From Zeus faber (Eukaryota; Chordata; Actinopteri; Zeiformes; Zeidae), in assembly GCA_960531495.1 (NCBI GenBank), contig CAUIJY010000071.1, positions 372,001 through 436,000 of the forward strand: a DNA stretch of 64,000 nt, read 5' to 3'. Shown piece by piece: positions 17,451 through 48,658 of the stretch; position 1 is the first letter of the stretch, and every line of letters begins with the position of its first letter. The notes below the pieces were generated by a model. The model was not told where the DNA came from and ran no database searches. It worked only from the letters and a program-made list of their open reading frames with translations. A program made the translations under genes and the position numbers.

Positions 17451-18490
17451 AGGCCCATCTAACATGTATTTGTGGAGTTATGATCATTTTCATCATTGTG
17501 TGCACATGTGGGAAAAAACGCATTTTCAGCCGATTTAAACGTCGAAAAGGGGAATTGGTTAAACGCTTCAGTCATTACTCTGTGTGACAGTCTCAGACAG
17601 TTTAAATACAATGGTGAACTAGTATATGCTGCTAAAGTGTTGTTTGTCAAACAGTTTTAGGCCCATGTAAAATGTATTTGTCGAGTTATGATTATATTCA
17701 TCATTGTGTGCACATGTGGGAAAAAACGCATTTTCAGCCGATTTAAACGTCGAAAAGGGGAATTGGTTAAACGCTTCAGTCATTACTCTGTGTGACAGTG
17801 TCAGACAGTTTAAATACAATGGTGAACTAGTATATGCTGCTAAAGCGTTGTTTGTCAAACAGTTTTAGGCCCATCTAACATGTATTCGTCGAGTTATGAT
17901 CATTTTCATCATTATGTGCACATGTGGGAAAAAACGCATTTTCAGCCGATTTAAACGTCGAAAAGGGGAATTGGTTAAACGCTTCAGTCATTACTCTGTG
18001 TGACAGTGTCAGACAGTTTAAATACAATGGTGAACTAGTATATGCTGCTAAAGCGTTGTTTGTCAAACAGTTTTAGGCCCATCTAACATGTATTCGTCGA
18101 GTTATGATCATTTTCATCATTATGTGCACATGTGGGAAAAAACGCATTTTCAGCCGATTTAAACGTCGAAAAGGGGAATTGGTTAAACGCTTCAGTCATT
18201 ACTCTGTGTGACAGTGTCAGACAGTTTAAATACAATGGTAAACTAGTATATGCTGCTAAAGTGTTGTTTGTCAAACAGTTTTAGGCCCATGTAAAATGTA
18301 TTTGTCGAGTTATGATTATTTTCATCATTGTGTGCACATGTGGGAAAAAACGCATTTTCAGCCGATTTAAACGTCGAAAAGGGGAATTGGTTAAACGCTT
18401 CTGTCATTACTCTGTGTGACAGTGTCAGACAGTTTAAATACAATGGTGAACTAGTATATGCTGCTAAAGTGTTGTTTGTCAAACAGTTTT
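17451..18490 (+). repeat. Five-A insertion (1,040 bp) between two 3,696-bp units
   Basis: The A monomers at 17,451 and 17,659 match 18,491 and 18,699, which open the next unit, but here no B pair follows. Both 17,659 and 17,867 carry 'aaagcg', normally found only just before a B. The segment looks like a HOR unit whose interior, including all B blocks, was removed by unequal exchange. Confidence 0.85.
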
Positions 18491-18906
18491 AGGCCCATCT
18501 AACATGTATTTGTGGAGTTATGATCATTTTCATCATTGTGTGCACATGTGGGAAAAAACGCATTTTCAGCCGATTTAAACGTCGAAAAGGGGAATTGGTT
18601 AAACGCTTCAGTCATTACTCTGTGTGACAGTCTCAGACAGTTTAAATACAATGGTGAACTAGTATATGCTGCTAAAGTGTTGTTTGTCAAACAGTTTTAG
18701 GCCCATGTAAAATGTATTTGTCGAGTTATGATTATATTCATCATTGTGTGCACATGTGGGAAAAAACGCATTTTCAGCCGATTTAAACGTCGAAAAGGGG
18801 AATTGGTTAAACGCTTCAGTCATTACTCTGTGTGACAGTGTCAGACAGTTTAAATACAATGGTGAACTAGTATATGCTGCTAAAGCGTTGTTTGTCAAAC
18901 AGTTTT

Positions 18907-19298
18907 AGGCCCATACAACATGTATTTGTCGAGGTATGAGCATTTTCAGAACATTGGACGGTTTGCTGTCTAGGTGAATTAGAGAAAGACCGAACCATTG
19001 TCTCTTCAGAGGTGAATGATTCAGAATGCTGCAGTACAGCATTGAAATTCAATTAATATGATGAACTATTATGTGCTTCCTAAGTTTTTCTCTCAGATTT
19101 CTATGCCCATCTAACATGTATTTCTGGAGTTATGAGCATTTTCAGAACATTGGACGGTTTGCTGTCTAGCTGAATTAGAGAAACACCGAACCATTGTCTC
19201 TTCAGAGGTGAATGATTCAGAATGCTGCAGTACAGCATAGAAATTTAATTAATATGATGAACTATTATGTGCTTCTTAAGTGTTCCTCACAGATTTCG
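18907..19298 (+). repeat. B1-B2 pair
   Basis: B1 is at 18,907-19,102 (gtctaggtgaa, gaaagaccg) and B2 at 19,103-19,298 (gagc core, tttcgagg end). Confidence 0.94.
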
Positions 19299-19714
19299 AG
19301 GCCCATCTAACATGTATTTGTGGAGTTATGATCATTTTCATCATTGTGTGCACATGTGGGAAAAAACGCATTTTCAGCCGATTTAAACGTCGAAAAGGGG
19401 AATTGGTTAAAGGCTTCAGTCATTACTCTGTGTGACAGTGTCAGACAGTTTAAATACAATGGTGAACTAGTATATGCAGCTAAAGTGTTGTTTGTCAAAC
19501 AGTTTTTGGCCCATGTAAAATGTATTTGTCGAGTTATGATTATATTCATCATTGTGTGCACATGTGGGAAAAAACGCATTTTCAGCCGATTTAAACGTCG
19601 AAAAGGGGAATTGGTTAAACGCTTCAGTCATTACTCTGTGTGACAGTGTCAGACAGTTTAAATACAATGGTGAACTAGTATATGCTGCTAAAGCGTTGTT
19701 TGTCAAACAGTGTT

Positions 19715-19910
19715 AGGCCCATACAACATGTTTTTGTCGAGGTATGAGCATTTTCAGAACATTGGACGGTTTGCTGTCTAGCTGAATTAGAGAAACACCG
19801 AACCATTGTCTCTTCAGAGGTGAATGATTCAGAATGCTGCAGTACAGCATAGAAATTTAATTAATATGATGAACTATTATGTGCTTCTTAAGTGTTTCTC
19901 ACAGATTTCT
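19715..19910 (+). repeat. Single chimeric B monomer
   Basis: Counterpart of 14,979 in the second full 3,696-bp unit. Confidence 0.93.
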
Positions 19911-20950
19911 AGGCCCATCTAACATGTATTTGTGGAGTTATGATCATTTTCATCATTGTGTGCACATGTGGGAAAAAACGCATTTTCAGCCGATTTAAAC
20001 GTCGAAAAGGGGAATTGGTTAAACGCTTCAGTCATTACTCTGTGTGACAGTGTCAGACAGTTTAAATACAATGGTGAACTAGTATATGCTGCAAAAGTGT
20101 TGTTTGTCAAACAGTTTTAGGCCCATGTAAAATGTATTTGTCGAGTTATGATTATATTCATCATTGTGTGCACATGTGGGAAAAAACGCATTTTCAGCCG
20201 ATTTAAACGTCGAAAAGGGGAATTGGTTAAACGCTTCAGTCATTACTCTGTGTGACAGTGTCAGACAGTTTAAATACAATGGTGAACTAGTATATGCTGC
20301 TAAAGTGTTGTTTGTCAAACAGTTTTAGGCCCATCTAACATGTATTTGTCGAGTTATGGTCATTTTCATCATTATTTGCACCTGTGGGAAAAAACGCATT
20401 TTCAGCCGATTTAAACGTCGAAAAGGAGAATTGGTTAAACGCTTCAGTCATTACTCTGTGTGACAGTGTCAGACAGTTTAAATACAATGGTGAACTAGTA
20501 TATGCTGCTAAAGTGTTGTTTGTCAACCAGTTTTAGGCCCATCTAACATGTATTTGTCGAGTTATGATCATTTTCATCATCATGTGTACATGTGGGAAAA
20601 AACGCATTTTCAGCCGATTTAAACGTCGAAAAGTGGAATTGGTTAAACGCTTCAGTCATTACTCTGTGTGACAGTGTCAGACAGTTTAAATACAATGGTG
20701 AACTAGTATATGCTGCTAAAGTGTTGTTTGTCAAACAGTTTTAGGCCCATCTAACATGTATTTGTCGAGTTATGATCATTTTCATCATTATGTGCACATG
20801 TGGGAAAAAACGCATTTTCAGCCGATTTAAACGTCGAAAAGGGGAATTGGTTAAACGCTTCAGTCATTACTCTGTGTGACAGTGTCAGACAGTTTAAATA
20901 CAATGGTGAACTAGTATATGCTGCTAAAGCGTTGTTTGTCAAACAGTTTT

Positions 20951-21146
20951 AGGCCCATACAACATGTATTTGTCGAGGTATGAGCATTTTCAGAACATTG
21001 GACGGTTTGCTGTCTAGCTGAATTAGAGAAACACCGAACCATTGTCTCTTCAGAGGTGAATGATTCAGAATGCTGCAGTAGGGCATAGAAGTTTTATTAA
21101 TATGATGAACTATTATGTGCTTCCTAAGTTTTTCTCTCAGATTTCT
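20951..21146 (+). repeat. Single B with B1 tail, agtagggcat form
   Basis: Counterpart of 16,215, with the same weakened dyad and the same atgcccat start in the following A at 21,147. Confidence 0.92.
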
Positions 21147-22602
21147 ATGCCCATCTAACATGTATTTGTGGAGTTAGGATCATTTTCATCATAGTGTGCA
21201 CATGTGGGAAAAAACGCATTTTCAGCCGATTTAAACGTCGAAAAGGGGAATTGGTTAAACGCTTCAGTCATTACTCTGTGTGACAGTCTCAGACAGTTTA
21301 AATACAATGGTGAACTAGTATATGCTGCTAAAGTGTTGTTTGTCAAACAGTTTTAGGCCCATGTAAAATGTATTTGTCGAGTTATGATTATATTCATCAT
21401 TGTGTGCACATGTGGGAAAAAACGCATTTTCAGCCGATTTAAACGTCGAAAAGGGGAATTGGTTAAACGCTTCAGTCATTACTCTGTGTGACAGTGTCAG
21501 ACAGTTTAAATACAATGGTGAACTAGTATATGCTGCTAAAGTGTTGTTTGTCAAACAGTTTTTGGCCCATGTAAAATGTATTTGTCGAGTTATGATTATA
21601 TTCATCATTGTGTGCACATGTGGGAAAAAACGCATTTTCAGCCGATTTAAACGTCGAAAAGGGGAATTGGTTAAACGCTTCAGTCATTACTCTGTGTGAC
21701 AGTGTCAGACAGTTTAAATACAATGGTAAACTAGTATATGCTGCTAAAGTGTTGTTTGTCAAACAGTTTTAGGCCCATCTAACATGTATTCGTCGAGTTA
21801 TGATCATTTTCATCATTATGTGCACATGTGGGAAAAAACGCATTTTCAGCCGATTTAAACGTCGAAAAGGGGAATTGGTTAAACGCTTCAGTCATTACTC
21901 TGTGTGACAGTGTCAGACAGTTTAAATACAATGGTAAACTAGTATATGCTGCTAAAGTGTTGTTTGTCAAACAGTTTTAGGCCCATGTAAAATGTATTTG
22001 TCGAGTTATGATTATTTTCATCATTGTGTGCACATGTGGGAAAAAACGCATTTTCAGCCGATTTAAACGTCGAAAAGGGGAATTGGTTAAACGCTTCTGT
22101 CATTACTCTGTGTGACAGTGTCAGACAGTTTAAATACAATGGTGAACTAGTATATGCTGCTAAAGTGTTGTTTGTCAAACAGTTTTAGGCCCATCTAACA
22201 TGTATTTGTGGAGTTATGATCATTTTCATCATTGTGTGCACATGTGGGAAAAAACGCATTTTCAGCCGATTTAAACGTCGAAAAGGGGAATTGGTTAAAC
22301 GCTTCAGTCATTACTCTGTGTGACAGTCTCAGACAGTTTAAATACAATGGTGAACTAGTATATGCTGCTAAAGTGTTGTTTGTCAAACAGTTTTAGGCCC
22401 ATGTAAAATGTATTTGTCGAGTTATGATTATATTCATCATTGTGTGCACATGTGGGAAAAAACGCATTTTCAGCCGATTTAAACGTCGAAAAGGGGAATT
22501 GGTTAAACGCTTCAGTCATTACTCTGTGTGACAGTGTCAGACAGTTTAAATACAATGGTGAACTAGTATATGCTGCTAAAGCGTTGTTTGTCAAACAGTT
22601 TT

Positions 22603-22994
22603 AGGCCCATACAACATGTATTTGTCGAGGTATGAGCATTTTCAGAACATTGGACGGTTTGCTGTCTAGGTGAATTAGAGAAAGACCGAACCATTGTCTC
22701 TTCAGAGGTGAATGATTCAGAATGCTGCAGTACAGCATTGAAATTCAATTAATATGATGAACTATTATGTGCTTCCTAAGTTTTTCTCTCAGATTTCTAT
22801 GCCCATCTAACATGTATTTCTGGAGTTATGAGCATTTTCAGAACATTGGACGGTTTGCTGTCTAGCTGAATTAGAGAAACACCGAACCATTGTCTCTTCA
22901 GAGGTGAATGATTCAGAATGCTGCAGTACAGCATAGAAATTTAATTAATATGATGAACTATTATGTGCTTCTTAAGTGTTCCTCACAGATTTCG
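22603..22994 (+). repeat. B1-B2 pair
   Basis: B1 is at 22,603-22,798 and B2 at 22,799-22,994; gtctaggtgaa class. Confidence 0.94.
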
Positions 22995-23410
22995 AGGCCC
23001 ATCTAACATGTATTTGTGGAGTTATGATCATTTTCATCATTGTGTGCACATGTGGGAAAAAACGCATTTTCAGCCGATTTAAACGTCGAAAAGGGGAATT
23101 GGTTAAAGGCTTCAGTCATTACTCTGTGTGACAGTGTCAGACAGTTTAAATACAATGGTGAACTAGTATATGCAGCTAAAGTGTTGTTTGTCAAACAGTT
23201 TTTGGCCCATGTAAAATGTATTTGTCGAGTTATGATTATATTCATCATTGTGTGCACATGTGGGAAAAAACGCATTTTCAGCCGATTTAAACGTCGAAAA
23301 GGGGAATTGGTTAAACGCTTCAGTCATTACTCTGTGTGACAGTGTCAGACAGTTTAAATACAATGGTGAACTAGTATATGCTGCTAAAGCGTTGTTTGTC
23401 AAACAGTGTT

Positions 23411-23606
23411 AGGCCCATACAACATGTTTTTGTCGAGGTATGAGCATTTTCAGAACATTGGACGGTTTGCTGTCTAGCTGAATTAGAGAAACACCGAACC
23501 ATTGTCTCTTCAGAGGTGAATGATTCAGAATGCTGCAGTACAGCATAGAAATTTAATTAATATGATGAACTATTATGTGCTTCTTAAGTGTTTCTCACAG
23601 ATTTCT
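23411..23606 (+). repeat. Single chimeric B monomer
   Basis: Counterpart of 19,715 in the third unit (catgtttttgtcgagg head). Confidence 0.93.
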
Positions 23607-24646
23607 AGGCCCATCTAACATGTATTTGTGGAGTTATGATCATTTTCATCATTGTGTGCACATGTGGGAAAAAACGCATTTTCAGCCGATTTAAACGTCG
23701 AAAAGGGGAATTGGTTAAACGCTTCAGTCATTACTCTGTGTGACAGTGTCAGACAGTTTAAATACAATGGTGAACTAGTATATGCTGCAAAAGTGTTGTT
23801 TGTCAAACAGTTTTAGGCCCATGTAAAATGTATTTGTCGAGTTATGATTATATTCATCATTGTGTGCACATGTGGGAAAAAACGCATTTTCAGCCGATTT
23901 AAACGTCGAAAAGGGGAATTGGTTAAACGCTTCAGTCATTACTCTGTGTGACAGTGTCAGACAGTTTAAATACAATGGTGAACTAGTATATGCTGCTAAA
24001 GTGTTGTTTGTCAAACAGTTTTAGGCCCATCTAACATGTATTTGTCGAGTTATGGTCATTTTCATCATTATTTGCACCTGTGGGAAAAAACGCATTTTCA
24101 GCCGATTTAAACGTCGAAAAGGAGAATTGGTTAAACGCTTCAGTCATTACTCTGTGTGACAGTGTCAGACAGTTTAAATACAATGGTGAACTAGTATATG
24201 CTGCTAAAGTGTTGTTTGTCAACCAGTTTTAGGCCCATCTAACATGTATTTGTCGAGTTATGATCATTTTCATCATCATGTGTACATGTGGGAAAAAACG
24301 CATTTTCAGCCGATTTAAACGTCGAAAAGTGGAATTGGTTAAACGCTTCAGTCATTACTCTGTGTGACAGTGTCAGACAGTTTAAATACAATGGTGAACT
24401 AGTATATGCTGCTAAAGTGTTGTTTGTCAAACAGTTTTAGGCCCATCTAACATGTATTTGTCGAGTTATGATCATTTTCATCATTATGTGCACATGTGGG
24501 AAAAAACGCATTTTCAGCCGATTTAAACGTCGAAAAGGGGAATTGGTTAAACGCTTCAGTCATTACTCTGTGTGACAGTGTCAGACAGTTTAAATACAAT
24601 GGTGAACTAGTATATGCTGCTAAAGCGTTGTTTGTCAAACAGTTTT

Positions 24647-24842
24647 AGGCCCATACAACATGTATTTGTCGAGGTATGAGCATTTTCAGAACATTGGACG
24701 GTTTGCTGTCTAGCTGAATTAGAGAAACACCGAACCATTGTCTCTTCAGAGGTGAATGATTCAGAATGCTGCAGTACAGCATAGAAGTTTTATTAATATG
24801 ATGAACTATTATGTGCTTCCTAAGTTTTTCTCTCAGATTTCT
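24647..24842 (+). repeat. Single B with B1 tail, intact dyad
   Basis: It keeps the gaagttttattaat tail of 16,215 and 20,951 but has an intact ATGCTG/CAGCAT dyad. The following A at 24,843 begins atgcccat. Confidence 0.92.
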
Positions 24843-25258
24843 ATGCCCATCTAACATGTATTTGTGGAGTTAGGATCATTTTCATCATAGTGTGCACATG
24901 TGGGAAAAAACGCATTTTCAGCCGATTTAAACGTCGAAAAGGGGAATTGGTTAAACGCTTCAGTCATTACTCTGTGTGACAGTCTCAGACAGTTTAAATA
25001 CAATGGTGAACTAGTATATGCTGCTAAAGTGTTGTTTGTCAAACAGTTTTAGGCCCATGTAAAATGTATTTGTCGAGTTATGATTATATTCATCATTGTG
25101 TGCACATGTGGGAAAAAACGCATTTTCAGCCGATTTAAACGTCGAAAAGGGGAATTGGTTAAACGCTTCAGTCATTACTCTGTGTGACAGTGTCAGACAG
25201 TTTAAATACAATGGTGAACTAGTATATGCTGCTAAAGCGTTGTTTGTCAAACAGTTTT

Positions 25259-25454
25259 AGGCCCATACAACATGTATTTGTCGAGGTATGAGCATTTTCA
25301 GAACATTGGACGGTTTGCTGTCTAGCTGAATTAGAGAAACACCGAACCATTGTCTCTTCAGAGGTGAATGATTCAGAATGCTGCAGTACAGCATAGAAAT
25401 TTAATTAATATGATGAACTATTATGTGCTTCTTAAGTGTTCCTCACAGATTTCG
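25259..25454 (+). repeat. Single chimeric B monomer
   Basis: B1 head (aggcccatacaac) with the gtgttcctcac ... tttcgagg tail otherwise seen in B2 of the 11,503 class. It is a crossover product distinct from the catgttttt form. Confidence 0.9.
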
Positions 25455-25870
25455 AGGCCCATCTAACATGTATTTGTGGAGTTATGATCATTTTCATCAT
25501 TGTGTGCACATGTGGGAAAAAACGCATTTTCAGCCGATTTAAACGTCAAAAAGGGGAATTGGTTAAACGCTTCAGTCATTACTCTGTGTGACAGTGTCAG
25601 ACAGTTTAAATACAATGGTGAACTAGTATATGCTGCTAAAGTGTTGTTTGTCAAACAGTTTTAGGCCCATGTAAAATGTATTTGTCGAGTTATGATTATA
25701 TTCATCATTGTGTGCACATGTGGGAAAAAACGCATTTTCAGCCGATTTAAACGTCGAAAAGGGGAATTGGTTAAACGCTTCAGTCATTACTCTGTGTGAC
25801 AGTGTCAGACAGTTTAAATACAATGGTGAACTAGTATATGCTGCTAAAGCGTTGTTTGTCAAACAGTGTT

Positions 25871-26262
25871 AGGCCCATACAAAATGTTTTTGTCGAGGTA
25901 TGAGCATTTTCAGAACATTGGACGGTTTGCTGTCTAGCTGAATTAGAGAAACACCGAACCATTGTCTCTTCAGAGGTGAATGATTCAGAATGCTGCAGTA
26001 CAGCATTGAAATTCAATTAATATGATGAACTATTATGTGCTTCCTAAGTTTTTCTCTCAGATTTCTATGCCCATCTAACATGTATTTCTGGAGTTATGAG
26101 CATTTTCAGAACATTGGACGGTTTGCTGTCTAGCTGAATTAGAGAAACACCGAACCATTGTCTCTTCAGAGGTGAATGATTCAGAATGCTGCAGTACAGC
26201 ATAGAAATTCAATTAATATGATGAACTATTATGTGCTTCCTAAGTTTTTCTCTCAGATTTCT
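25871..26262 (+). repeat. B1-B2 pair with B1-type tail on the second monomer
   Basis: B1 at 25,871-26,066 begins acaaaatgttttt. The second monomer at 26,067-26,262 has a B2 head but ends gaaattcaatt ... cctaagtttttctctc, the B1 tail, and the next A (26,263) starts atgcccat. Another exchange between B1 and B2 is implied. Confidence 0.9.
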
Positions 26263-27094
26263 ATGCCCATCTAACATGTATTTGTGGAGTTATGATCATT
26301 TTCATCATAGTGTGCACATGTGGGAAAAAACGCATTTTCAGCCGATTTAAACGTCGAAAAGGGGAATTGGTTAAACGCTTCAGTCATTACTCTGTGTGAC
26401 AGTGTCAGACAGTTTAAATACAATGGTAAACTAGTATATGCTGCTAAAGTGTTGTTTGTCAAACAGTTTTAGGCCCATGTAAAATGTATTTGTCGAGTTA
26501 TGATTATTTTCATCATTGTGTGCACATGTGGGAAAAAACGCATTTTCAGCCGATTTAAACGTCGAAAAGGGGAATTGCTTAAACGCTTCTGTCATTACTC
26601 TGTTTGACAGTGTCAGACAGTTTAAATACAATGGTGAACTAGTATATGCTGCTAAAGTGTTGTTTGTCAAACAGTTTTAGGCCCATCTAACATGTATTTG
26701 TGGAGTTATGATCATTTTCATCATTGTGTGCACATGTGGGAAAAAACGCATTTTCAGCCGATTTAAACGTCGAAAAGGGGAATTGGTTAAACGCTTCAGT
26801 CATTACTCTGTGTGACAGTGTCAGACAGTTTAAATACAATGGTGAACTAGTATATGCTGCTAAAGTGTTGTTTGTCAAACAGTTTTAGGCCCATGTAAAA
26901 TGTATTTGTCGAGTTATGATTATATTCATCATTGTGTGCACATGTGGGAAAAAACGCATTTTCAGCCGATTTAAACGTCGAAAAGGGGAATTGGTTAAAC
27001 GCTTCAGTCATTACTCTGTGTGACAGTGTCAGACAGTTTAAATACAATGGTGAACTAGTATATGCTGCTAAAGCGTTGTTTGTCAAACAGTTTT

Positions 27095-27486
27095 AGGCCC
27101 ATACAACATGTATTTGTCGAGGTATGAGCATTTTCAGAACATTGGACGGTTTGCTGTCTAGCTGAATTAGAGAAACACCGAACCATTGTCTCTTCAGAGG
27201 TGAATGATTCAGAATGCTGCAGTACAGCATTGAAATTCAATTAATATGATGAACTATTATGTGCTTCCTAAGTTTTTCTCTCAGATTTCTATGCCCATCT
27301 AACATGTATTTCTGGAGTTATGAGCATTTTCAGAACATTGGACGGTTTGCTGTCTAGCTGAATTAGAGAAACACCGAACCATTGTCTCTTCAGAGGTGAA
27401 TGATTCAGAATGCTGCAGTACAGCATAGAAATTTAATTAATATGATGAACTATTATGTGCTTCTTAAGTGTTTCTCACAGATTTCT
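27095..27486 (+). repeat. B1-B2 pair
   Basis: B1 is at 27,095-27,290 (gaaattcaatt) and B2 at 27,291-27,486 (gagc core, standard cttaagtgtttctcac tail). Confidence 0.94.
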
Positions 27487-28318
27487 AGGCCCATCTAACA
27501 TGTATTTGTGGAGTTATGATCATTTTCATCATTGTGTGCACATGTGGGAAAAAACGCATTTTCAGCCGATTTAAACGTCGAAAAGGGGAATTGGTTAAAC
27601 GCTTCAGTCATTACGCTGTGTGACAGTGTCAGACAGTTTAAATACAATGGTGAACTAGTATATGCTGCTAAAGTGTTGTTTGTCAAACAGTTTTAGGCCC
27701 ATGTAAAATGTATTTGTCGAGTTATGATTATTTTCATCATTGTGTGCACATGTGGGAAAAAACGCATTTTCAGCCGATTTAAACGTCTAAAAGGGGAATT
27801 GGTTAAACGCTTCAGTCATTACTCTGTGTGACAGTGTCAGACAGTTTAGATACAATGGTGAACTAGTATATGCTGCCAAAGTGTTGTTTGTCAACCAGTT
27901 TTAGGCCCATCTAACATGTATTTGTTGAGTTATGATCATTTTCATCATTATGTGTACATGTGTGAAAAAACGCATTTTCAGCCGATTTAAACGTCGAAAA
28001 GGGGAATTGCTTAAACGCTTCAGTCATTACTCTGTGTGACAGTGTCAGACAGTTTAAATACAATGGTGAACTAGTATATGCTGCTAAAGTGTTGTTTGTC
28101 AAACAGTTTTAGGCCCATCTGACATGTATTTGTGGAGTTATGATCATTTACATCATAGTGTGCACATGTGGGAAAAAACGCATTTTCAGCCGATTTAAAC
28201 GTCGAAAAGGGGAATTGGTTAAACGCTTCAGTCATTACTCTGTGTGACAGTGTCAGACAGTTTAAATACAATGGTGAACTAGTATATGCTGCTAAAGCGT
28301 TGTTTGTCAAACAGTTTT

Positions 28319-28710
28319 AGGCCCATACAACATGTATTTGTCGAGGTATGAGCATTTTCAGAACATTGGACGGTTTGCTGTCTAGCTGAATTAGAGAAAC
28401 ACCGAACCATTGTCTCTTTAGAGGTGAATGATTCAGAATGCTGCAGTACAGCATTGAAATTTAATTAATATGATGAACTATTATGTGCTTCCTAAGTTTT
28501 TCTCTCAGATTTCTATGCCCATCTAACATGTATTTCTGGAGTTAGGATCATTTTCAGAACTTGTGACGGTTTGCTGTCTAGCTGAATTAGAGAAACACCG
28601 AACCATTGTCTCTTCAGAGGTGAATGATTCAGAATGCTGCAGTACAGCATAGAAATTTAATTAATATGATGAACTATTATGTGCTTCTTAAGTGTTTCTC
28701 ACAGATTTCT
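28319..28710 (+). repeat. B1-B2 pair, ctctttagagg class
   Basis: B1 at 28,319-28,514 has gtctctttagagg. B2 at 28,515-28,710 has ctggagttaggatc and gaacttgtgac. These marks define all later pairs up to 60,811. Confidence 0.94.
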
Positions 28711-30998: not shown

Positions 30999-31390
30999 AG
31001 GCCCATACAACATGTATTTGTCGAGGTATGAGCATTTTCAGAACATTGGACGGTTTGCTGTCTAGCTGAATTAGAGAAACACCGAACCATTGTCTCTTTA
31101 GAGGTGAATGATTCAGAATGCTGCAGTACAGCATTGAAATTTAATTAATATGATGAACTATTATGTGCTTCCTAAGTTTTTCTCTCAGATTTCTATGCCC
31201 ATCTAACATGTATTTCTGGAGTTAGGATCATTTTCAGAACTTGTGACGGTTTGCTGTCTAGCTGAATTAGAGAAACACCGAACCATTGTCTCTTCAGAGG
31301 TGAATGATTCAGAATGCTGCAGTACAGCATAGAAATTTAATTAATATGATGAACTATTATGTGCTTCTTAAGTGTTTCTCACAGATTTCT
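30999..31390 (+). repeat. B1-B2 pair
   Basis: B1 is at 30,999-31,194 and B2 at 31,195-31,390; ctctttagagg and ttaggatc class. Confidence 0.94.
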
Positions 31391-35930: not shown

Positions 35931-36126
35931 AGGCCCATACAACATGTATTTGTCGAGGTATGAGCATTTTCAGAACATTGGACGGTTTGCTGTCTAGCTG
36001 AATTAGAGAAACACCGAACCATTGTCTCTTCAGAGGTGAATGATTCAGAATGCTGCAGTAGGGCATAGAAGTTTTATTAATATGATGAACTATTATGTGC
36101 TTCCTAAGTTTTTCTCTCAGATTTCT
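35931..36126 (+). repeat. Single B, agtagggcat form (image of 20,951)
   Basis: Carries the weakened dyad; the next A (36,127) starts atgcccat. Confidence 0.92.
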
Positions 36127-37582
36127 ATGCCCATCTAACATGTATTTGTGGAGTTAGGATCATTTTCATCATAGTGTGCACATGTGGGAAAAAACGCATT
36201 TTCAGCCGATTTAAACGTCGAAAAGGGGAATTGGTTAAACGCTTCAGTCATTACTCTGTGTGACAGTCTCAGACAGTTTAAATACAATGGTGAACTAGTA
36301 TATGCTGCTAAAGTGTTGTTTGTCAAACAGTTTTAGGCCCATGTAAAATGTATTTGTCGAGTTATGATTATATTCATCATTGTGTGCACATGTGGGAAAA
36401 AACGCATTTTCAGCCGATTTAAACGTCGAAAAGGGGAATTGGTTAAACGCTTCAGTCATTACTCTGTGTGACAGTGTCAGACAGTTTAAATACAATGGTG
36501 AACTAGTATATGCTGCTAAAGTGTTGTTTGTCAAACAGTTTTTGGCCCATGTAAAATGTATTTGTCGAGTTATGATTATATTCATCATTGTGTGCACATG
36601 TGGGAAAAAACGCATTTTCAGCCGATTTAAACGTCGAAAAGGGGAATTGGTTAAACGCTTCAGTCATTACTCTGTGTGACAGTGTCAGACAGTTTAAATA
36701 CAATGGTAAACTAGTATATGCTGCTAAAGTGTTGTTTGTCAAACAGTTTTAGGCCCATCTAACATGTATTCGTCGAGTTATGATCATTTTCATCATTATG
36801 TGCACATGTGGGAAAAAACGCATTTTCAGCCGATTTAAACGTCGAAAAGGGGAATTGGTTAAACGCTTCAGTCATTACTCTGTGTGACAGTGTCAGACAG
36901 TTTAAATACAATGGTAAACTAGTATATGCTGCTAAAGTGTTGTTTGTCAAACAGTTTTAGGCCCATGTAAAATGTATTTGTCGAGTTATGATTATTTTCA
37001 TCATTGTGTGCACATGTGGGAAAAAACGCATTTTCAGCCGATTTAAACGTCGAAAAGGGGAATTGGTTAAACGCTTCTGTCATTACTCTGTGTGACAGTG
37101 TCAGACAGTTTAAATACAATGGTGAACTAGTATATGCTGCTAAAGTGTTGTTTGTCAAACAGTTTTAGGCCCATCTAACATGTATTTGTGGAGTTATGAT
37201 CATTTTCATCATTGTGTGCACATGTGGGAAAAAACGCATTTTCAGCCGATTTAAACGTCGAAAAGGGGAATTGGTTAAACGCTTCAGTCATTACTCTGTG
37301 TGACAGTCTCAGACAGTTTAAATACAATGGTGAACTAGTATATGCTGCTAAAGTGTTGTTTGTCAAACAGTTTTAGGCCCATGTAAAATGTATTTGTCGA
37401 GTTATGATTATATTCATCATTGTGTGCACATGTGGGAAAAAACGCATTTTCAGCCGATTTAAACGTCGAAAAGGGGAATTGGTTAAACGCTTCAGTCATT
37501 ACTCTGTGTGACAGTGTCAGACAGTTTAAATACAATGGTGAACTAGTATATGCTGCTAAAGCGTTGTTTGTCAAACAGTTTT

Positions 37583-37974
37583 AGGCCCATACAACATGTA
37601 TTTGTCGAGGTATGAGCATTTTCAGAACATTGGACGGTTTGCTGTCTAGGTGAATTAGAGAAAGACCGAACCATTGTCTCTTCAGAGGTGAATGATTCAG
37701 AATGCTGCAGTACAGCATTGAAATTCAATTAATATGATGAACTATTATGTGCTTCCTAAGTTTTTCTCTCAGATTTCTATGCCCATCTAACATGTATTTC
37801 TGGAGTTATGAGCATTTTCAGAACATTGGACGGTTTGCTGTCTAGCTGAATTAGAGAAACACCGAACCATTGTCTCTTCAGAGGTGAATGATTCAGAATG
37901 CTGCAGTACAGCATAGAAATTTAATTAATATGATGAACTATTATGTGCTTCTTAAGTGTTCCTCACAGATTTCG
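37583..37974 (+). repeat. B1-B2 pair (image of 22,603)
   Basis: B1 is at 37,583-37,778 and B2 at 37,779-37,974. Confidence 0.94.
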
Positions 37975-38390
37975 AGGCCCATCTAACATGTATTTGTGGA
38001 GTTATGATCATTTTCATCATTGTGTGCACATGTGGGAAAAAACGCATTTTCAGCCGATTTAAACGTCGAAAAGGGGAATTGGTTAAAGGCTTCAGTCATT
38101 ACTCTGTGTGACAGTGTCAGACAGTTTAAATACAATGGTGAACTAGTATATGCAGCTAAAGTGTTGTTTGTCAAACAGTTTTTGGCCCATGTAAAATGTA
38201 TTTGTCGAGTTATGATTATATTCATCATTGTGTGCACATGTGGGAAAAAACGCATTTTCAGCCGATTTAAACGTCGAAAAGGGGAATTGGTTAAACGCTT
38301 CAGTCATTACTCTGTGTGACAGTGTCAGACAGTTTAAATACAATGGTGAACTAGTATATGCTGCTAAAGCGTTGTTTGTCAAACAGTGTT

Positions 38391-38586
38391 AGGCCCATAC
38401 AACATGTTTTTGTCGAGGTATGAGCATTTTCAGAACATTGGACGGTTTGCTGTCTAGCTGAATTAGAGAAACACCGAACCATTGTCTCTTCAGAGGTGAA
38501 TGATTCAGAATGCTGCAGTACAGCATAGAAATTTAATTAATATGATGAACTATTATGTGCTTCTTAAGTGTTTCTCACAGATTTCT
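38391..38586 (+). repeat. Single chimeric B (image of 23,411)
   Basis: Preceded by acagtgtt, as in copy 1. Confidence 0.93.
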
Positions 38587-39626
38587 AGGCCCATCTAACA
38601 TGTATTTGTGGAGTTATGATCATTTTCATCATTGTGTGCACATGTGGGAAAAAACGCATTTTCAGCCGATTTAAACGTCGAAAAGGGGAATTGGTTAAAC
38701 GCTTCAGTCATTACTCTGTGTGACAGTGTCAGACAGTTTAAATACAATGGTGAACTAGTATATGCTGCAAAAGTGTTGTTTGTCAAACAGTTTTAGGCCC
38801 ATGTAAAATGTATTTGTCGAGTTATGATTATATTCATCATTGTGTGCACATGTGGGAAAAAACGCATTTTCAGCCGATTTAAACGTCGAAAAGGGGAATT
38901 GGTTAAACGCTTCAGTCATTACTCTGTGTGACAGTGTCAGACAGTTTAAATACAATGGTGAACTAGTATATGCTGCTAAAGTGTTGTTTGTCAAACAGTT
39001 TTAGGCCCATCTAACATGTATTTGTCGAGTTATGGTCATTTTCATCATTATTTGCACCTGTGGGAAAAAACGCATTTTCAGCCGATTTAAACGTCGAAAA
39101 GGAGAATTGGTTAAACGCTTCAGTCATTACTCTGTGTGACAGTGTCAGACAGTTTAAATACAATGGTGAACTAGTATATGCTGCTAAAGTGTTGTTTGTC
39201 AACCAGTTTTAGGCCCATCTAACATGTATTTGTCGAGTTATGATCATTTTCATCATCATGTGTACATGTGGGAAAAAACGCATTTTCAGCCGATTTAAAC
39301 GTCGAAAAGTGGAATTGGTTAAACGCTTCAGTCATTACTCTGTGTGACAGTGTCAGACAGTTTAAATACAATGGTGAACTAGTATATGCTGCTAAAGTGT
39401 TGTTTGTCAAACAGTTTTAGGCCCATCTAACATGTATTTGTCGAGTTATGATCATTTTCATCATTATGTGCACATGTGGGAAAAAACGCATTTTCAGCCG
39501 ATTTAAACGTCGAAAAGGGGAATTGGTTAAACGCTTCAGTCATTACTCTGTGTGACAGTGTCAGACAGTTTAAATACAATGGTGAACTAGTATATGCTGC
39601 TAAAGCGTTGTTTGTCAAACAGTTTT

Positions 39627-39822
39627 AGGCCCATACAACATGTATTTGTCGAGGTATGAGCATTTTCAGAACATTGGACGGTTTGCTGTCTAGCTGAATT
39701 AGAGAAACACCGAACCATTGTCTCTTCAGAGGTGAATGATTCAGAATGCTGCAGTACAGCATAGAAGTTTTATTAATATGATGAACTATTATGTGCTTCC
39801 TAAGTTTTTCTCTCAGATTTCT
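39627..39822 (+). repeat. Single B with B1 tail (image of 24,647)
   Basis: Intact dyad and gaagttttattaat tail. Confidence 0.92.
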
Positions 39823-40238
39823 ATGCCCATCTAACATGTATTTGTGGAGTTAGGATCATTTTCATCATAGTGTGCACATGTGGGAAAAAACGCATTTTCA
39901 GCCGATTTAAACGTCGAAAAGGGGAATTGGTTAAACGCTTCAGTCATTACTCTGTGTGACAGTCTCAGACAGTTTAAATACAATGGTGAACTAGTATATG
40001 CTGCTAAAGTGTTGTTTGTCAAACAGTTTTAGGCCCATGTAAAATGTATTTGTCGAGTTATGATTATATTCATCATTGTGTGCACATGTGGGAAAAAACG
40101 CATTTTCAGCCGATTTAAACGTCGAAAAGGGGAATTGGTTAAACGCTTCAGTCATTACTCTGTGTGACAGTGTCAGACAGTTTAAATACAATGGTGAACT
40201 AGTATATGCTGCTAAAGCGTTGTTTGTCAAACAGTTTT

Positions 40239-40434
40239 AGGCCCATACAACATGTATTTGTCGAGGTATGAGCATTTTCAGAACATTGGACGGTTTGCTG
40301 TCTAGCTGAATTAGAGAAACACCGAACCATTGTCTCTTCAGAGGTGAATGATTCAGAATGCTGCAGTACAGCATAGAAATTTAATTAATATGATGAACTA
40401 TTATGTGCTTCTTAAGTGTTCCTCACAGATTTCG
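40239..40434 (+). repeat. Single chimeric B (image of 25,259)
   Basis: B1 head joined to the gtgttcctcac ... tttcgagg tail. Confidence 0.9.
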
Positions 40435-40850
40435 AGGCCCATCTAACATGTATTTGTGGAGTTATGATCATTTTCATCATTGTGTGCACATGTGGGAAAA
40501 AACGCATTTTCAGCCGATTTAAACGTCAAAAAGGGGAATTGGTTAAACGCTTCAGTCATTACTCTGTGTGACAGTGTCAGACAGTTTAAATACAATGGTG
40601 AACTAGTATATGCTGCTAAAGTGTTGTTTGTCAAACAGTTTTAGGCCCATGTAAAATGTATTTGTCGAGTTATGATTATATTCATCATTGTGTGCACATG
40701 TGGGAAAAAACGCATTTTCAGCCGATTTAAACGTCGAAAAGGGGAATTGGTTAAACGCTTCAGTCATTACTCTGTGTGACAGTGTCAGACAGTTTAAATA
40801 CAATGGTGAACTAGTATATGCTGCTAAAGCGTTGTTTGTCAAACAGTGTT

Positions 40851-41242
40851 AGGCCCATACAAAATGTTTTTGTCGAGGTATGAGCATTTTCAGAACATTG
40901 GACGGTTTGCTGTCTAGCTGAATTAGAGAAACACCGAACCATTGTCTCTTCAGAGGTGAATGATTCAGAATGCTGCAGTACAGCATTGAAATTCAATTAA
41001 TATGATGAACTATTATGTGCTTCCTAAGTTTTTCTCTCAGATTTCTATGCCCATCTAACATGTATTTCTGGAGTTATGAGCATTTTCAGAACATTGGACG
41101 GTTTGCTGTCTAGCTGAATTAGAGAAACACCGAACCATTGTCTCTTCAGAGGTGAATGATTCAGAATGCTGCAGTACAGCATAGAAATTCAATTAATATG
41201 ATGAACTATTATGTGCTTCCTAAGTTTTTCTCTCAGATTTCT
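40851..41242 (+). repeat. B pair with B1-type second tail (image of 25,871)
   Basis: Monomers are at 40,851-41,046 and 41,047-41,242; acaaaatgttttt head retained. Confidence 0.9.
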
Positions 41243-42074
41243 ATGCCCATCTAACATGTATTTGTGGAGTTATGATCATTTTCATCATAGTGTGCACATG
41301 TGGGAAAAAACGCATTTTCAGCCGATTTAAACGTCGAAAAGGGGAATTGGTTAAACGCTTCAGTCATTACTCTGTGTGACAGTGTCAGACAGTTTAAATA
41401 CAATGGTAAACTAGTATATGCTGCTAAAGTGTTGTTTGTCAAACAGTTTTAGGCCCATGTAAAATGTATTTGTCGAGTTATGATTATTTTCATCATTGTG
41501 TGCACATGTGGGAAAAAACGCATTTTCAGCCGATTTAAACGTCGAAAAGGGGAATTGCTTAAACGCTTCTGTCATTACTCTGTTTGACAGTGTCAGACAG
41601 TTTAAATACAATGGTGAACTAGTATATGCTGCTAAAGTGTTGTTTGTCAAACAGTTTTAGGCCCATCTAACATGTATTTGTGGAGTTATGATCATTTTCA
41701 TCATTGTGTGCACATGTGGGAAAAAACGCATTTTCAGCCGATTTAAACGTCGAAAAGGGGAATTGGTTAAACGCTTCAGTCATTACTCTGTGTGACAGTG
41801 TCAGACAGTTTAAATACAATGGTGAACTAGTATATGCTGCTAAAGTGTTGTTTGTCAAACAGTTTTAGGCCCATGTAAAATGTATTTGTCGAGTTATGAT
41901 TATATTCATCATTGTGTGCACATGTGGGAAAAAACGCATTTTCAGCCGATTTAAACGTCGAAAAGGGGAATTGGTTAAACGCTTCAGTCATTACTCTGTG
42001 TGACAGTGTCAGACAGTTTAAATACAATGGTGAACTAGTATATGCTGCTAAAGCGTTGTTTGTCAAACAGTTTT

Positions 42075-42466
42075 AGGCCCATACAACATGTATTTGTCGA
42101 GGTATGAGCATTTTCAGAACATTGGACGGTTTGCTGTCTAGCTGAATTAGAGAAACACCGAACCATTGTCTCTTCAGAGGTGAATGATTCAGAATGCTGC
42201 AGTACAGCATTGAAATTCAATTAATATGATGAACTATTATGTGCTTCCTAAGTTTTTCTCTCAGATTTCTATGCCCATCTAACATGTATTTCTGGAGTTA
42301 TGAGCATTTTCAGAACATTGGACGGTTTGCTGTCTAGCTGAATTAGAGAAACACCGAACCATTGTCTCTTCAGAGGTGAATGATTCAGAATGCTGCAGTA
42401 CAGCATAGAAATTTAATTAATATGATGAACTATTATGTGCTTCTTAAGTGTTTCTCACAGATTTCT
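42075..42466 (+). repeat. B1-B2 pair (image of 27,095)
   Basis: Monomers are at 42,075-42,270 and 42,271-42,466. Confidence 0.94.
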
Positions 42467-43298
42467 AGGCCCATCTAACATGTATTTGTGGAGTTATGAT
42501 CATTTTCATCATTGTGTGCACATGTGGGAAAAAACGCATTTTCAGCCGATTTAAACGTCGAAAAGGGGAATTGGTTAAACGCTTCAGTCATTACGCTGTG
42601 TGACAGTGTCAGACAGTTTAAATACAATGGTGAACTAGTATATGCTGCTAAAGTGTTGTTTGTCAAACAGTTTTAGGCCCATGTAAAATGTATTTGTCGA
42701 GTTATGATTATTTTCATCATTGTGTGCACATGTGGGAAAAAACGCATTTTCAGCCGATTTAAACGTCTAAAAGGGGAATTGGTTAAACGCTTCAGTCATT
42801 ACTCTGTGTGACAGTGTCAGACAGTTTAGATACAATGGTGAACTAGTATATGCTGCCAAAGTGTTGTTTGTCAACCAGTTTTAGGCCCATCTAACATGTA
42901 TTTGTTGAGTTATGATCATTTTCATCATTATGTGTACATGTGTGAAAAAACGCATTTTCAGCCGATTTAAACGTCGAAAAGGGGAATTGCTTAAACGCTT
43001 CAGTCATTACTCTGTGTGACAGTGTCAGACAGTTTAAATACAATGGTGAACTAGTATATGCTGCTAAAGTGTTGTTTGTCAAACAGTTTTAGGCCCATCT
43101 GACATGTATTTGTGGAGTTATGATCATTTACATCATAGTGTGCACATGTGGGAAAAAACGCATTTTCAGCCGATTTAAACGTCGAAAAGGGGAATTGGTT
43201 AAACGCTTCAGTCATTACTCTGTGTGACAGTGTCAGACAGTTTAAATACAATGGTGAACTAGTATATGCTGCTAAAGCGTTGTTTGTCAAACAGTTTT

Positions 43299-43690
43299 AG
43301 GCCCATACAACATGTATTTGTCGAGGTATGAGCATTTTCAGAACATTGGACGGTTTGCTGTCTAGCTGAATTAGAGAAACACCGAACCATTGTCTCTTTA
43401 GAGGTGAATGATTCAGAATGCTGCAGTACAGCATTGAAATTTAATTAATATGATGAACTATTATGTGCTTCCTAAGTTTTTCTCTCAGATTTCTATGCCC
43501 ATCTAACATGTATTTCTGGAGTTAGGATCATTTTCAGAACTTGTGACGGTTTGCTGTCTAGCTGAATTAGAGAAACACCGAACCATTGTCTCTTCAGAGG
43601 TGAATGATTCAGAATGCTGCAGTACAGCATAGAAATTTAATTAATATGATGAACTATTATGTGCTTCTTAAGTGTTTCTCACAGATTTCT
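43299..43690 (+). repeat. B1-B2 pair (image of 28,319)
   Basis: Monomers are at 43,299-43,494 and 43,495-43,690; ctctttagagg class. Confidence 0.94.
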
Positions 43691-45978
43691 AGGCCCATCT
43701 AAGATGTATTTGTGGAGTTATGATCATTTTCATCATTGTGTGCACATGTGGGAAAAAACGCATTTTCAGCCGATTTAAACGTCGAAAAGGGGAATTGGTT
43801 AAACGCTTCAGTCATTACTCTGTGTGACAGTGTCAGACAGTTTAAATACAATGGTGAACTAGTATATGCTGCTAAAGTGTTGTTTGTCAAACAGTTTTAG
43901 GCCCATGTAAAATGTATTTGTCGAGTTATGATTACATTCATCATTGTGTGCACATGTGCGAAAAAACGCATTTTCAGCCGATTTAAACGTCGAAAAGGGG
44001 AATTGGTTAAACGCTTCAGTCATTACTCTGTGTGACAGTGTCAGACAGTTTAAATACAATGGTAAACTAGTATATGCTGCTAAAGTGTTGTTTGTCAAAC
44101 AGTTTTAGGCCCATGTAAAATGTATTTGTCGAGTTATGATTATTTTCATCATTGTGTGCACATGTGGGAAAAAACGCATTTTCAGCCGATTTAAACGTCG
44201 AAAAGGGGAATTGGTTAAACGCTTCAGTCATTACTCTGTGTGACGGTGTCAGACAGTTTAAATACAATGGTGAACTAGTATATGCTGCTAAAGTGTTGTT
44301 TGTCAACCAGTTTCGGGCCCATCTAACATGTATTTGTTGAGTTATGATCATTTTCATCATTATGTGTACATGTGGGAAAAAACGCATTTTCAGCCGATTT
44401 AAACGTCGAAAAGGGGAATTGCTTAAACGCTTCAGTCATTACTCTGTGTGACAGTGTCAGACAGTTTAAATACAATGGTGAACTAGTATATGCTGCTAAA
44501 GTGTTGTTTGTCAAACAGTTTTAGGCCCATCTAACATGTATTTGTCGAGTTATGGTCATTTTCATCATTATGTGCACATGTGGGAAAAAACGCATTTTCA
44601 GCCGATTTAAACGTCGAAAAGGGGAATTGCTTAAACGCTTCAGTCATTACTCTGTGTGACAGTGTCAGACAGTTTAAATACAATGGTAAACTAGTATATG
44701 CTGCTAAAGTGTTGTTTGTCAAACAGTTTTAGGCCCATCTAACATGTATTTGTCGAGTTATGGTCATTTTCATCATTATGTGCACATGTGGGAAAAAACG
44801 CATTTTCAGCCGATTTAAACGTTGAAAAGGGGAATTGCTTAAACGCTTCAGTCATTAATCTGTGTGACAGTGTCAGACAGTTTAAATACAATGGTGAACT
44901 AGTATATGCTGCTAAAGTGTTGTTTTTCAAACAGTTTTAGGCCCATTTAACATGTATTCGTCGAGTTATGATCATTTTCATCATTATGTGCACATGTGGG
45001 AAAAAACGCATTTTCAGCCGATTTAAACGTCGAAAAGGGGAATTGGTTAAACGCTTCAGTCATTACTCTGTGTGACAGTGTCAGACAGTTTAAATACAAT
45101 GGTAAACTAGTATATGCTGCTAAAGTGTTGTTTGTCAAACAGTTTTAGGCCCATGTAAAATGTATTTGTCGAGTTATGATTATTTTCATTATTGTGTGCA
45201 CATGTGGGAAAAAACGCATTTTCAGCCGATTTAAACGTCGAAAAGGGGAATTGGTTAAACGCTTCAGTCATTACGCTGTGTGACAGTGTCAGACAGTTTA
45301 AATACAATGGTGAACTAGTATATGCTGCTAAAGTGTTGTTTGTCAAACAGTTTTAGGCCCATGTAAAATGTATTTGTCGAGTTATGATTATTTTCATCAT
45401 TGTGTGCACATGTGGGAAAAAACGCATTTTCAGCCGATTTAAACGTCTAAAAGGGGAATTGGTTAAACGCTTCAGTCATTACTCTGTGTGACAGTGTCAG
45501 ACAGTTTAGATACAATGGTGAACTAGTATATGCTGCCAAAGTGTTGTTTGTCAACCAGTTTTAGGCCCATCTAACATGTATTTGTTGAGTTATGATCATT
45601 TTCATCATTATGTGTACATGTGTGAAAAAACGCATTTTCAGCCGATTTAAACGTCGAAAAGGGGAATTGCTTAAACGCTTCAGTCATTACTCTGTGTGAC
45701 AGTGTCAGACAGTTTAAATACAATGGTGAACTAGTATATGCTGCTAAAGTGTTGTTTGTCAAACAGTTTTAGGCCCATCTGACATGTATTTGTGGAGTTA
45801 TGATCATTTACATCATAGTGTGCACATGTGGGAAAAAACGCATTTTCAGCCGATTTAAACGTCGAAAAGGGGAATTGGTTAAACGCTTCAGTCATTACTC
45901 TGTGTGACAGTGTCAGACAGTTTAAATACAATGGTGAACTAGTATATGCTGCTAAAGCGTTGTTTGTCAAACAGTTTT

Positions 45979-46370
45979 AGGCCCATACAACATGTATTTG
46001 TCGAGGTATGAGCATTTTCAGAACATTGGACGGTTTGCTGTCTAGCTGAATTAGAGAAACACCGAACCATTGTCTCTTTAGAGGTGAATGATTCAGAATG
46101 CTGCAGTACAGCATTGAAATTTAATTAATATGATGAACTATTATGTGCTTCCTAAGTTTTTCTCTCAGATTTCTATGCCCATCTAACATGTATTTCTGGA
46201 GTTAGGATCATTTTCAGAACTTGTGACGGTTTGCTGTCTAGCTGAATTAGAGAAACACCGAACCATTGTCTCTTCAGAGGTGAATGATTCAGAATGCTGC
46301 AGTACAGCATAGAAATTTAATTAATATGATGAACTATTATGTGCTTCTTAAGTGTTTCTCACAGATTTCT
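45979..46370 (+). repeat. B1-B2 pair (image of 30,999)
   Basis: Monomers are at 45,979-46,174 and 46,175-46,370. The distance to the next pair (48,659) is again 2,680 bp. Confidence 0.94.
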
Positions 46371-48658
46371 AGGCCCATCTAAGATGTATTTGTGGAGTTA
46401 TGATCATTTTCATCATTGTGTGCACATGTGGGAAAAAACGCATTTTCAGCCGATTTAAACGTCGAAAAGGGGAATTGGTTAAACGCTTCAGTCATTACTC
46501 TGTGTGACAGTGTCAGACAGTTTAAATACAATGGTGAACTAGTATATGCTGCTAAAGTGTTGTTTTTCAAACAGTTTTAGGCCCATTTAACATGTATTCG
46601 TCGAGTTATGATCATTTTCATCATTATGTGCACATGTGGGAAAAAACGCATTTTCAGCCGATTTAAACGTCGAAAAGGGGAATTGGTTAAACGCTTCAGT
46701 CATTACTCTGTGTGACAGTGTCAGACAGTTTAAATACAATGGTAAACTAGTATATGCTGCTAAAGTGTTGTTTGTCAAACAGTTTTAGGCCCATGTAAAA
46801 TGTATTTGTCGAGTTATGATTATTTTCATCATTGTGTGCACATGTGGGAACAAACGCATTTTCAGCCGATTTAAACGTCGAAAAGGGGAATTGGTTAAAC
46901 GCTTCAGTCATTACTCTGTGTGACGGTGTCAGACAGTTTAAATACAATGGTGAACTAGTATATGCTGCTAAAGTGTTGTTTGTCAACCAGTTTCGGGCCC
47001 ATCTAACATGTATTTGTTGAGTTATGATCATTTTCATCATTATGTGTACATGTGGGAAAAAACGCATTTTCAGCCGATTTAAACGTCGAAAAGGGGAATT
47101 GCTTAAACGCTTCAGTCATTACTCTGTGTGACAGTGTCAGACAGTTTAAATACAATGGTGAACTAGTATATGCTGCTAAAGTGTTGTTTGTCAAACAGTT
47201 TTAGGCCCATCTAACATGTATTTGTCGAGTTATGGTCATTTTCATCATTATGTGCACATGTGGGAAAAAACGCATTTTCAGCCGATTTAAACGTCGAAAA
47301 GGGGAATTGCTTAAACGCTTCAGTCATTACTCTGTGTGACAGTGTCAGACAGTTTAAATACAATGGTAAACTAGTATATGCTGCTAAAGTGTTGTTTGTC
47401 AAACAGTTTTAGGCCCATCTAACATGTATTTGTCGAGTTATGGTCATTTTCATCATTATGTGCACATGTGGGAAAAAACGCATTTTCAGCCGATTTAAAC
47501 GTTGAAAAGGGGAATTGCTTAAACGCTTCAGTCATTAATCTGTGTGACAGTGTCAGACAGTTTAAATACAATGGTGAACTAGTATATGCTGCTAAAGTGT
47601 TGTTTTTCAAACAGTTTTAGGCCCATTTAACATGTATTCGTCGAGTTATGATCATTTTCATCATTATGTGCACATGTGGGAAAAAACGCATTTTCAGCCG
47701 ATTTAAACGTCGAAAAGGGGAATTGGTTAAACGCTTCAGTCATTACTCTGTGTGACAGTGTCAGACAGTTTAAATACAATGGTAAACTAGTATATGCTGC
47801 TAAAGTGTTGTTTGTCAAACAGTTTTAGGCCCATGTAAAATGTATTTGTCGAGTTATGATTATTTTCATCATTGTGTGCACATGTGGGAAAAAACGCATT
47901 TTCAGCCGATTTAAACGTCGAAAAGGGGAATTGGTTAAACGCTTCAGTCATTACGCTGTGTGACAGTGTCAGACAGTTTAAATACAATGGTGAACTAGTA
48001 TATGCTGCTAAAGTGTTGTTTGTCAAACAGTTTTAGGCCCATGTAAAATGTATTTGTCGAGTTATGATTATTTTCATCATTGTGTGCACATGTGGGAAAA
48101 AACGCATTTTCAGCGGATTTAAACGTCTAAAAGGGGAATTGGTTAAACGCTTCAGTCATTACTCTGTGTGACAGTGTCAGACAGTTTAGATACAATGGTG
48201 AACTAGTATATGCTGCCAAAGTGTTGTTTGTCAACCAGTTTTAGGCCCATCTAACATGTATTTGTTGAGTTATGATCATTTTCATCATTATGTGTACATG
48301 TGTGAAAAAACGCATTTTCAGCCGATTTAAACGTCGAAAAGGGGAATTGCTTAAACGCTTCAGTCATTACTCTGTGTGACAGTGTCAGACAGTTTAAATA
48401 CAATGGTGAACTAGTATATGCTGCTAAAGTGTTGTTTGTCAAACAGTTTTAGGCCCATCTGACATGTATTTGTGGAGTTATGATCATTTACATCATAGTG
48501 TGCACATGTGGGAAAAAACGCATTTTCAGCCGATTTAAACGTCGAAAAGGGGAATTGGTTAAACGCTTCAGTCATTACTCTGTGTGACAGTGTCAGACAG
48601 TTTAAATACAATGGTGAACTAGTATATGCTGCTAAAGCGTTGTTTGTCAAACAGTTTT

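What the first reader, a model, noticed from the sequence alone, without database searches (positions are those of the whole stretch)
17451..47410. 14,980-bp tandem duplication inside the satellite, apparently near-identical
The 73-monomer block at 17,451-32,430 is followed directly by a second copy with the same order, including variants otherwise unique in the window (agtagggcat, acgtcaaaaagg, ctgtttgacag, tttcattattgtg, gggaacaaacg). The length equals 56x208 + 17x196. Flank comparison limits the exchange to about 65 bp (17,409-17,473), across an A-A junction, so it is in register and looks like one unequal exchange. It cuts across three HOR types and is therefore younger than all of them. 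It could also be an assembly duplication.
Basis: partly seen in the sequence, partly recalled or inferred. Interest (0 to 1): 0.72.

Follow-up and report, generated by a model that had tools for sequence, protein, structure and literature searches.

The report
Exact 15-kb duplication inside satellite DNA
A stretch of 73 satellite repeats (14,980 bases) sits twice in a row without a single difference, most likely a very recent unequal exchange of the ordinary kind that makes satellite arrays grow, although only sequencing reads can rule out an assembly error.

Summary
The next longest exact direct repeat in C78:290,001-466,000 is 4,039 bp. The block starts in one higher-order-repeat lineage (zone I) and ends in another (zone II), giving I|I-II|I-II|II. 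Both outer boundaries are neighbour pairs that recur exactly elsewhere; the middle joint does not at <=2 differences per monomer. Of 53 plus-strand copies of the tract in 236 kb, the recombinant flank combination A..G occurs once, at that joint. One tandem duplication predicts this. Random end-to-end joins reach such a tract in 0.14% of trials, so that artefact is unlikely; a homology-guided misjoin or a wrong copy number cannot be excluded without reads. Best reading: one recent out-of-register exchange (between sister chromatids, or break-induced replication) in monomer phase but not in higher-order-repeat phase. This is a known kind of event; a 56-kb germline candidate is reported in a human centromere (PMC12746033, passages). 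Mildly interesting.

The parts
17451..32430 (+). first copy of the 14,980-bp block (73 monomers: 56 of 208 bp, 17 of 196 bp)
32431..47410 (+). second copy, identical at 14,980 of 14,980 positions
17409..17473 (+). 65-bp exchange tract, left parental form (zone I; flanking bases G..G)
32389..32453 (+). 65-bp exchange tract, recombinant form at the copy 1/copy 2 joint (flanking bases A..G; 1 of 53 plus-strand copies of the tract in 236 kb)
   Evidence: adjacency unsupported at <=2 differences; the 460 bp over the joint matched at 100% only by itself among scored candidates
47369..47433 (+). 65-bp exchange tract, right parental form (zone II; flanking bases A..C)
10255..17450 (+). zone I satellite left of the block (3,696- and 4,736-bp higher-order steps); left limit approximate
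47411..61800 (+). zone II satellite right of the block (2,680-, 4,528- and 3,304-bp higher-order steps); right limit approximate

Best explanation
A 14,980-bp segment of a 208/196-bp satellite was duplicated in tandem by one recent homology-dependent, out-of-register exchange, most likely between sister chromatids: an unequal crossover or, equally well, break-induced replication restarting 73 monomers back. A zone II monomer near the right end (tract now at 47,369-47,433) paired with a zone I monomer near the left end (17,409-17,473) in the same monomer phase, and the switch fell within 65 identical bp. The result is the order I|I-II|I-II|II. Shown: the exact duplication, the new middle joint between two recurring outer pairs, the recombinant tract, the zone order. 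Inferred: that it exists in the organism and not only in the assembly, that exactly two copies exist, and which recombination pathway made it.
For: Zero of 14,980 differences. The monomer pair at 17,451 recurs exactly at 6 other places (4 if +14,980 counterparts are counted once) and the pair at 47,411 at 3 (2 if counterparts are counted once), whereas the pair at 32,431 recurs nowhere at <=2 differences per monomer in 147 kb. Tract flanks: A..C 6, G..G 9, G..C 37, A..G 1 (at the joint) of 53 plus-strand copies. Zone order I|I-II|I-II|II. Parental flanks are 95-96% identical in the 200-400 bp on either side, for which a 65-bp tract is ordinary: tracts <=65 bp hold 33% (minimum tract 20) or 7% (minimum 50) of the length-weighted exchange opportunity. 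A 40.0-Mb contig of the same genome (C3) has another exact tandem duplication of this satellite (5,360-bp step, 6,903 bp exact), so such events recur.
Against: Exact repeats of about 15 kb are a size at which long-read assemblies can miscount copies (recalled). New adjacencies are not rare here: at <=2 differences 19 of 252 adjacencies are unsupported elsewhere, 15 of them with both monomers multicopy (32,431 included, five mirrored pairs counted twice); at 0 differences 68 and 10; at <=4 differences 4, and 32,431 is then supported. [quoted passage not shown]
Confidence: 0.75

Rival explanations
1. Assembly error: the assembler walked the block twice through a false overlap between zone II and zone I repeats, and the genome has one copy.
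For: The copies are identical, the block is about as long as a long read (recalled), and a homology-guided misjoin would also be in register.
Against: The joint has only 65 bp of perfect identity in flanks that differ by 4-5%; over 4 kb on each side 220 mismatches plus gaps of 196-392 bp were counted, with some letters left unaligned. Accurate long reads would separate these (inference; read type unknown). A homology-free end-to-end join gives a tract of >=65 bp in 0.14% of 20,000 trials on the model array. No N lies in the 236 kb read.
Confidence: 0.2
2. The duplication is real but the copy number is wrong: the genome holds three or more identical copies that the assembly collapsed to two, or the haplotypes differ in number. 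(Overlaps with the best explanation; same mechanism.)
For: Identical 15-kb units leave nothing to count by except depth or reads longer than about 30 kb (inference).
Against: None available here.
Confidence: 0.25
3. The identity is kept by gene conversion between two older copies, so the duplication is not young.
For: Gene conversion in maize centromeres is reported (PMC2834710, start of the abstract seen in a search listing).
Against: Conversion would have to cover 15,045 bp to its last base; copies of four neighbouring steps keep 0.34-0.51% divergence.
Confidence: 0.04
4. A block copy was inserted here from elsewhere (transposition, circular-DNA reinsertion).
For: None beyond the presence of two copies.
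Against: An insertion makes two new joints unless it falls exactly at the tract; here both outer pairs recur elsewhere. Among the 40 of 261 candidates scored, no second 100% match of the joint was found. Reinsertion of a circle by homology at the tract would look the same and is not excluded.
Confidence: 0.03

Closest known systems
Unequal-exchange growth of satellite arrays (Smith 1976 model) and its break-induced-replication variant (Rice), as described in the review PMC8997354 (passages)
   Same: Tandem duplication with a new joint in homologous monomer phase, nested over older higher-order repeats.
   Different: Nothing categorical; the pathway (crossover or BIR) is not distinguished here.
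De novo structural changes in human alpha-satellite arrays (PMC12240836, passages; PMC12746033, preprint, passages)
   Same: Single-step changes of kilobases to tens of kilobases: 680 to 12,228 bp in the first; [quoted passage not shown]
   Different: In PMC12240836 all alpha-satellite HOR changes were whole numbers of HOR units. Here the exchange keeps monomer phase but joins two HOR lineages (zone II to zone I).
Medaka centromere satellites (PMC5705604, passages)
   Same: Long satellite regions (20-345 kb) in a vertebrate with a genome of about 0.7 Gb.
   Different: The monomer was not compared. That the present genome is a fish is recalled from the look of its retroelements, not tested.
C3 array of the same genome
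   Same: Same satellite, an exact tandem duplication (6,903 bp exact at a 5,360-bp step).
   Different: There the shared tract is 1,543 bp; here it is 65 bp.

Membership tests
Recent tandem duplication by unequal exchange in a satellite | two adjacent direct copies of the same order | tested here: met
   0 of 14,980 differences
Recent tandem duplication by unequal exchange in a satellite | one new joint, between copy 1 end and copy 2 start, and old outer boundaries | tested here: met
   pairs at 17,451 and 47,411 recur exactly elsewhere, pair at 32,431 does not at <=2 differences (it does at <=4); A..G tract 1 of 53 plus-strand copies
Recent tandem duplication by unequal exchange in a satellite | joint lies in homologous monomer phase with a shared tract | tested here: met
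   65-bp tract, A-A joint
Recent tandem duplication by unequal exchange in a satellite | joint present in genomic DNA (reads) | not testable with these tools
   no reads held
HOR-register unequal exchange (as in human alpha satellite) | change in whole HOR units; partners of one HOR lineage | tested here: not met
   partners have their nearest neighbours in different zones and flanks 95-96% identical
Assembly false duplication (end-to-end contig join) | joint without homology, often marked by N | tested here: not met
   0.14% of 20,000 random joins reach 65 bp; no N in 236 kb
Assembly false duplication (homology-guided) | joint unsupported by reads, halved depth | not testable with these tools
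   no reads held
Active centromere satellite | binds the centromeric histone | not testable with these tools
   no ChIP data; CENP-B box (motif recalled) has 0 matches in the window with up to one mismatch, 2.66 expected by chance

The most novel reading that the evidence does not exclude
In this satellite, large duplications can be made by pairing in monomer phase across different HOR lineages with only 65 bp of perfect identity in 4-5% diverged flanks, so the joint founds a new 73-monomer unit that mixes two lineages. In the human pedigree data read here (PMC12240836, passages), by contrast, every alpha-satellite HOR change kept whole HOR units.
Probability: 0.5. Interest if true: 0.4.

Novelty: new member of a known kind. 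Interest (0 to 1): 0.25.

Why it matters
It catches one step of satellite growth fresh enough that the joint, the two parental tracts and the zone order can all be read, so the state before the duplication can be inferred and the step size and shared homology stated. It is also a good test site for whether an assembly counts identical repeats of about read length correctly.

Tried and rejected
CENP-B box: 0 matches in the window with up to one mismatch, 2.66 expected by chance. Exact matches of >=600 bp between the window and the reverse complement of 30 kb of the C3 array: none, so the block was not copied unchanged from that stretch. Inverted exact repeats of >=500 bp in C78:290,001-466,000: none, so no exact palindrome ties the block to the strand switch. 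A second exact copy of the joint elsewhere in the assembly, which would have confirmed it independently, was not found; next best 98% (40 of 261 candidates scored). A word search with monomer lengths gave two papers, judged unrelated from title and abstract. A six-term search for recent identical kb duplications in centromeres gave none, which says little. Listings were used to choose papers.

Limits of the tests: the zone strip uses zone I of copy 1 as part of its reference, so zone I labels in copy 2 are partly circular; the matches of 32,431 at 11,087 and 13,755 lie outside both copies and are not. Of the exact matches of 32,223 only 59,355 lies outside both copies. Searches compare only monomers of equal length (unequal pairs were scored 99), and one search lists only runs in which every monomer differs by <=12, so its divergences lean low. 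The homogeneity profile counts the duplicate itself as a neighbour, so inside the block it is perfect by construction. The tract count covers the plus strand only. Flank alignments beyond 1 kb left some letters unaligned.

Full report
What is there. The window is C78:372,001-436,000 of an 803-Mb assembly in 153 contigs and consists of one satellite in one orientation, built mainly of 208-bp and 196-bp monomers. Positions 17,451-32,430 and 32,431-47,410 are identical at all 14,980 positions; the exact match runs 15,045 bp (17,409-32,453 against +14,980). The excess of 65 bp is the stretch shared by both outer boundaries and the joint. The block holds 73 monomers, 56 of 208 and 17 of 196 bp. In C78:290,001-466,000 the next longest exact direct repeat is 4,039 bp, and 54 pairs in all reach 1,000 bp, so this is the outlier of the part of the array that I read.

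The block spans two lineages. Nearest-neighbour typing splits this part of the array into a left zone I (3,696- and 4,736-bp higher-order steps) and a right zone II (2,680-, 4,528- and 3,304-bp steps), with a mixed stretch between them. With the block limits marked, the order is I | I-II | I-II | II (zone I labels in copy 2 are partly circular because copy 1 is in the reference). The monomer before the joint (32,223) has its exact matches in zone II (29,543; 44,523; 47,203; 59,355, of which only the last lies outside both copies), and the one after it (32,431) in zone I (11,087 and 13,755 outside both copies; 17,451, 18,491, 22,187 and 33,471 inside).

One new joint. The neighbour pair at 17,451 recurs exactly at 10,879, 13,547, 18,283 and 21,979, and at 33,263 and 36,959, the counterparts of the last two. 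The pair at 47,411 recurs exactly at 29,543 and 44,523 (counterparts of each other) and at 59,355. The pair at 32,431 recurs nowhere in the 147 kb of plus-strand array at <=2 differences per monomer. By itself this is weak: 19 of 252 adjacencies are unsupported at that threshold, 15 of them with both monomers multicopy (32,431 among them); at 0 differences the numbers are 68 and 10; at <=4 differences 4 are unsupported and the joint is not among them. The sharper test is the tract itself. Of 53 exact plus-strand copies of the 65-bp tract in 236 kb, 9 are flanked by G..G (form of the left parent), 6 by A..C (form of the right parent), 37 by G..C, and one by A..G, at the joint. A 460-bp stretch over the joint has one 100% match in the assembly, itself; the next are 98%, with 40 of 261 candidates scored.

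Mechanism. The parental flanks are 95-96% identical over 200-400 bp next to the tract. In a model array with one block removed, exact tracts of <=65 bp carry 33% of the length-weighted exchange opportunity if 20 bp suffice and 7% if 50 bp are needed; at shifts of 14-16 kb, 34% and 7%. So a 65-bp tract needs no hotspot. The partners belong to different higher-order lineages, so the exchange kept monomer phase, not HOR phase. [quoted passage not shown] The review PMC8997354 (passages) describes both unequal exchange and break-induced replication; nothing here separates them. Two published results speak against simple crossing over between homologues as the general route: none of 27 euchromatic de novo structural changes coincided with crossovers (PMC12240836), and the spread of new human HORs was read as implicating other mechanisms than simple unequal crossover (PMC11062924, passages). 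I therefore favour a sister-chromatid or replication-restart route; this is inference.

Age. Zero differences in 15,045 bp put the divergence below 2.0e-4 (95%, Poisson), i.e. fewer than about 20,000, 10,000 or 990 generations for rates of 5e-9, 1e-8 and 1.01e-7 (the last is the human centromeric estimate of PMC12240836; the others are assumed; none is from this species). Copies of neighbouring steps differ by 16/4,112 (3,696), 24/5,360 (4,736), 16/4,736 (4,528) and 16/3,130 (6,189), which would predict 51-77 differences over this length. The duplication is younger than these steps unless conversion intervened.

Artefact or real. A random end-to-end join gives a tract of >=65 bp in 0.14% and of >=20 bp in 0.26% of 20,000 trials on the model array, and no N lies in the 236 kb. 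A misjoin guided by homology would be in register, but would have to ignore 4-5% divergence on both sides. Another exact tandem duplication of the same satellite, 6,903 bp exact at a 5,360-bp step, lies on the 40-Mb contig C3 (30 kb read there). These arguments favour a real event, but reads decide, and there could be more than two copies.

Verdict. It is a clean, apparently very young example of a known process.

Noticed in passing
C78:436,187-436,199 (just beyond the window's right end): The satellite switches strand: plus orientation up to 436,186, minus orientation from 436,200 to 466,641 with one interruption. Nearly all monomers between about 382 and 434 kb have an identical neighbour, though inside the duplicated block this is so by construction.
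   Followed up: partly
C78:443,048-448,490 (L018, L019): A non-LTR retroelement interrupts the inverted arm: zinc-knuckle ORF (PF00098), endonuclease (PF03372) and reverse transcriptase (PF00078) in frames open as they stand.
   Followed up: partly
C78:466,642-526,000 (L021-L026): Beyond the satellite lies a mostly 23-25% GC stretch, on L022 a tandem repeat with TRF consensus AAGATTGAAAGA (TRF run on L022 only), and an endonuclease-bearing ORF at 504,412-505,737.
   Followed up: partly
G000 as a whole: A 27-base anchor of this satellite has 8,430 forward and 6,948 reverse exact copies in the assembly against 0 and 0 for the reversed control. Relatives of the window were met on C1, C3, C8, C11, C19, C20, C97, C140 and C149 (listings capped).
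   Followed up: partly
window 1,583-1,699 and 7,772-7,888: A 58-bp stretch is doubled; 254-bp monomers (196 + 58; 4 in 147 kb) probably come from this.
   Followed up: no
C3:39,705,652-39,717,914: Exact tandem duplication of the same satellite with a 5,360-bp step and 1,543 bp of further identity.
   Followed up: partly
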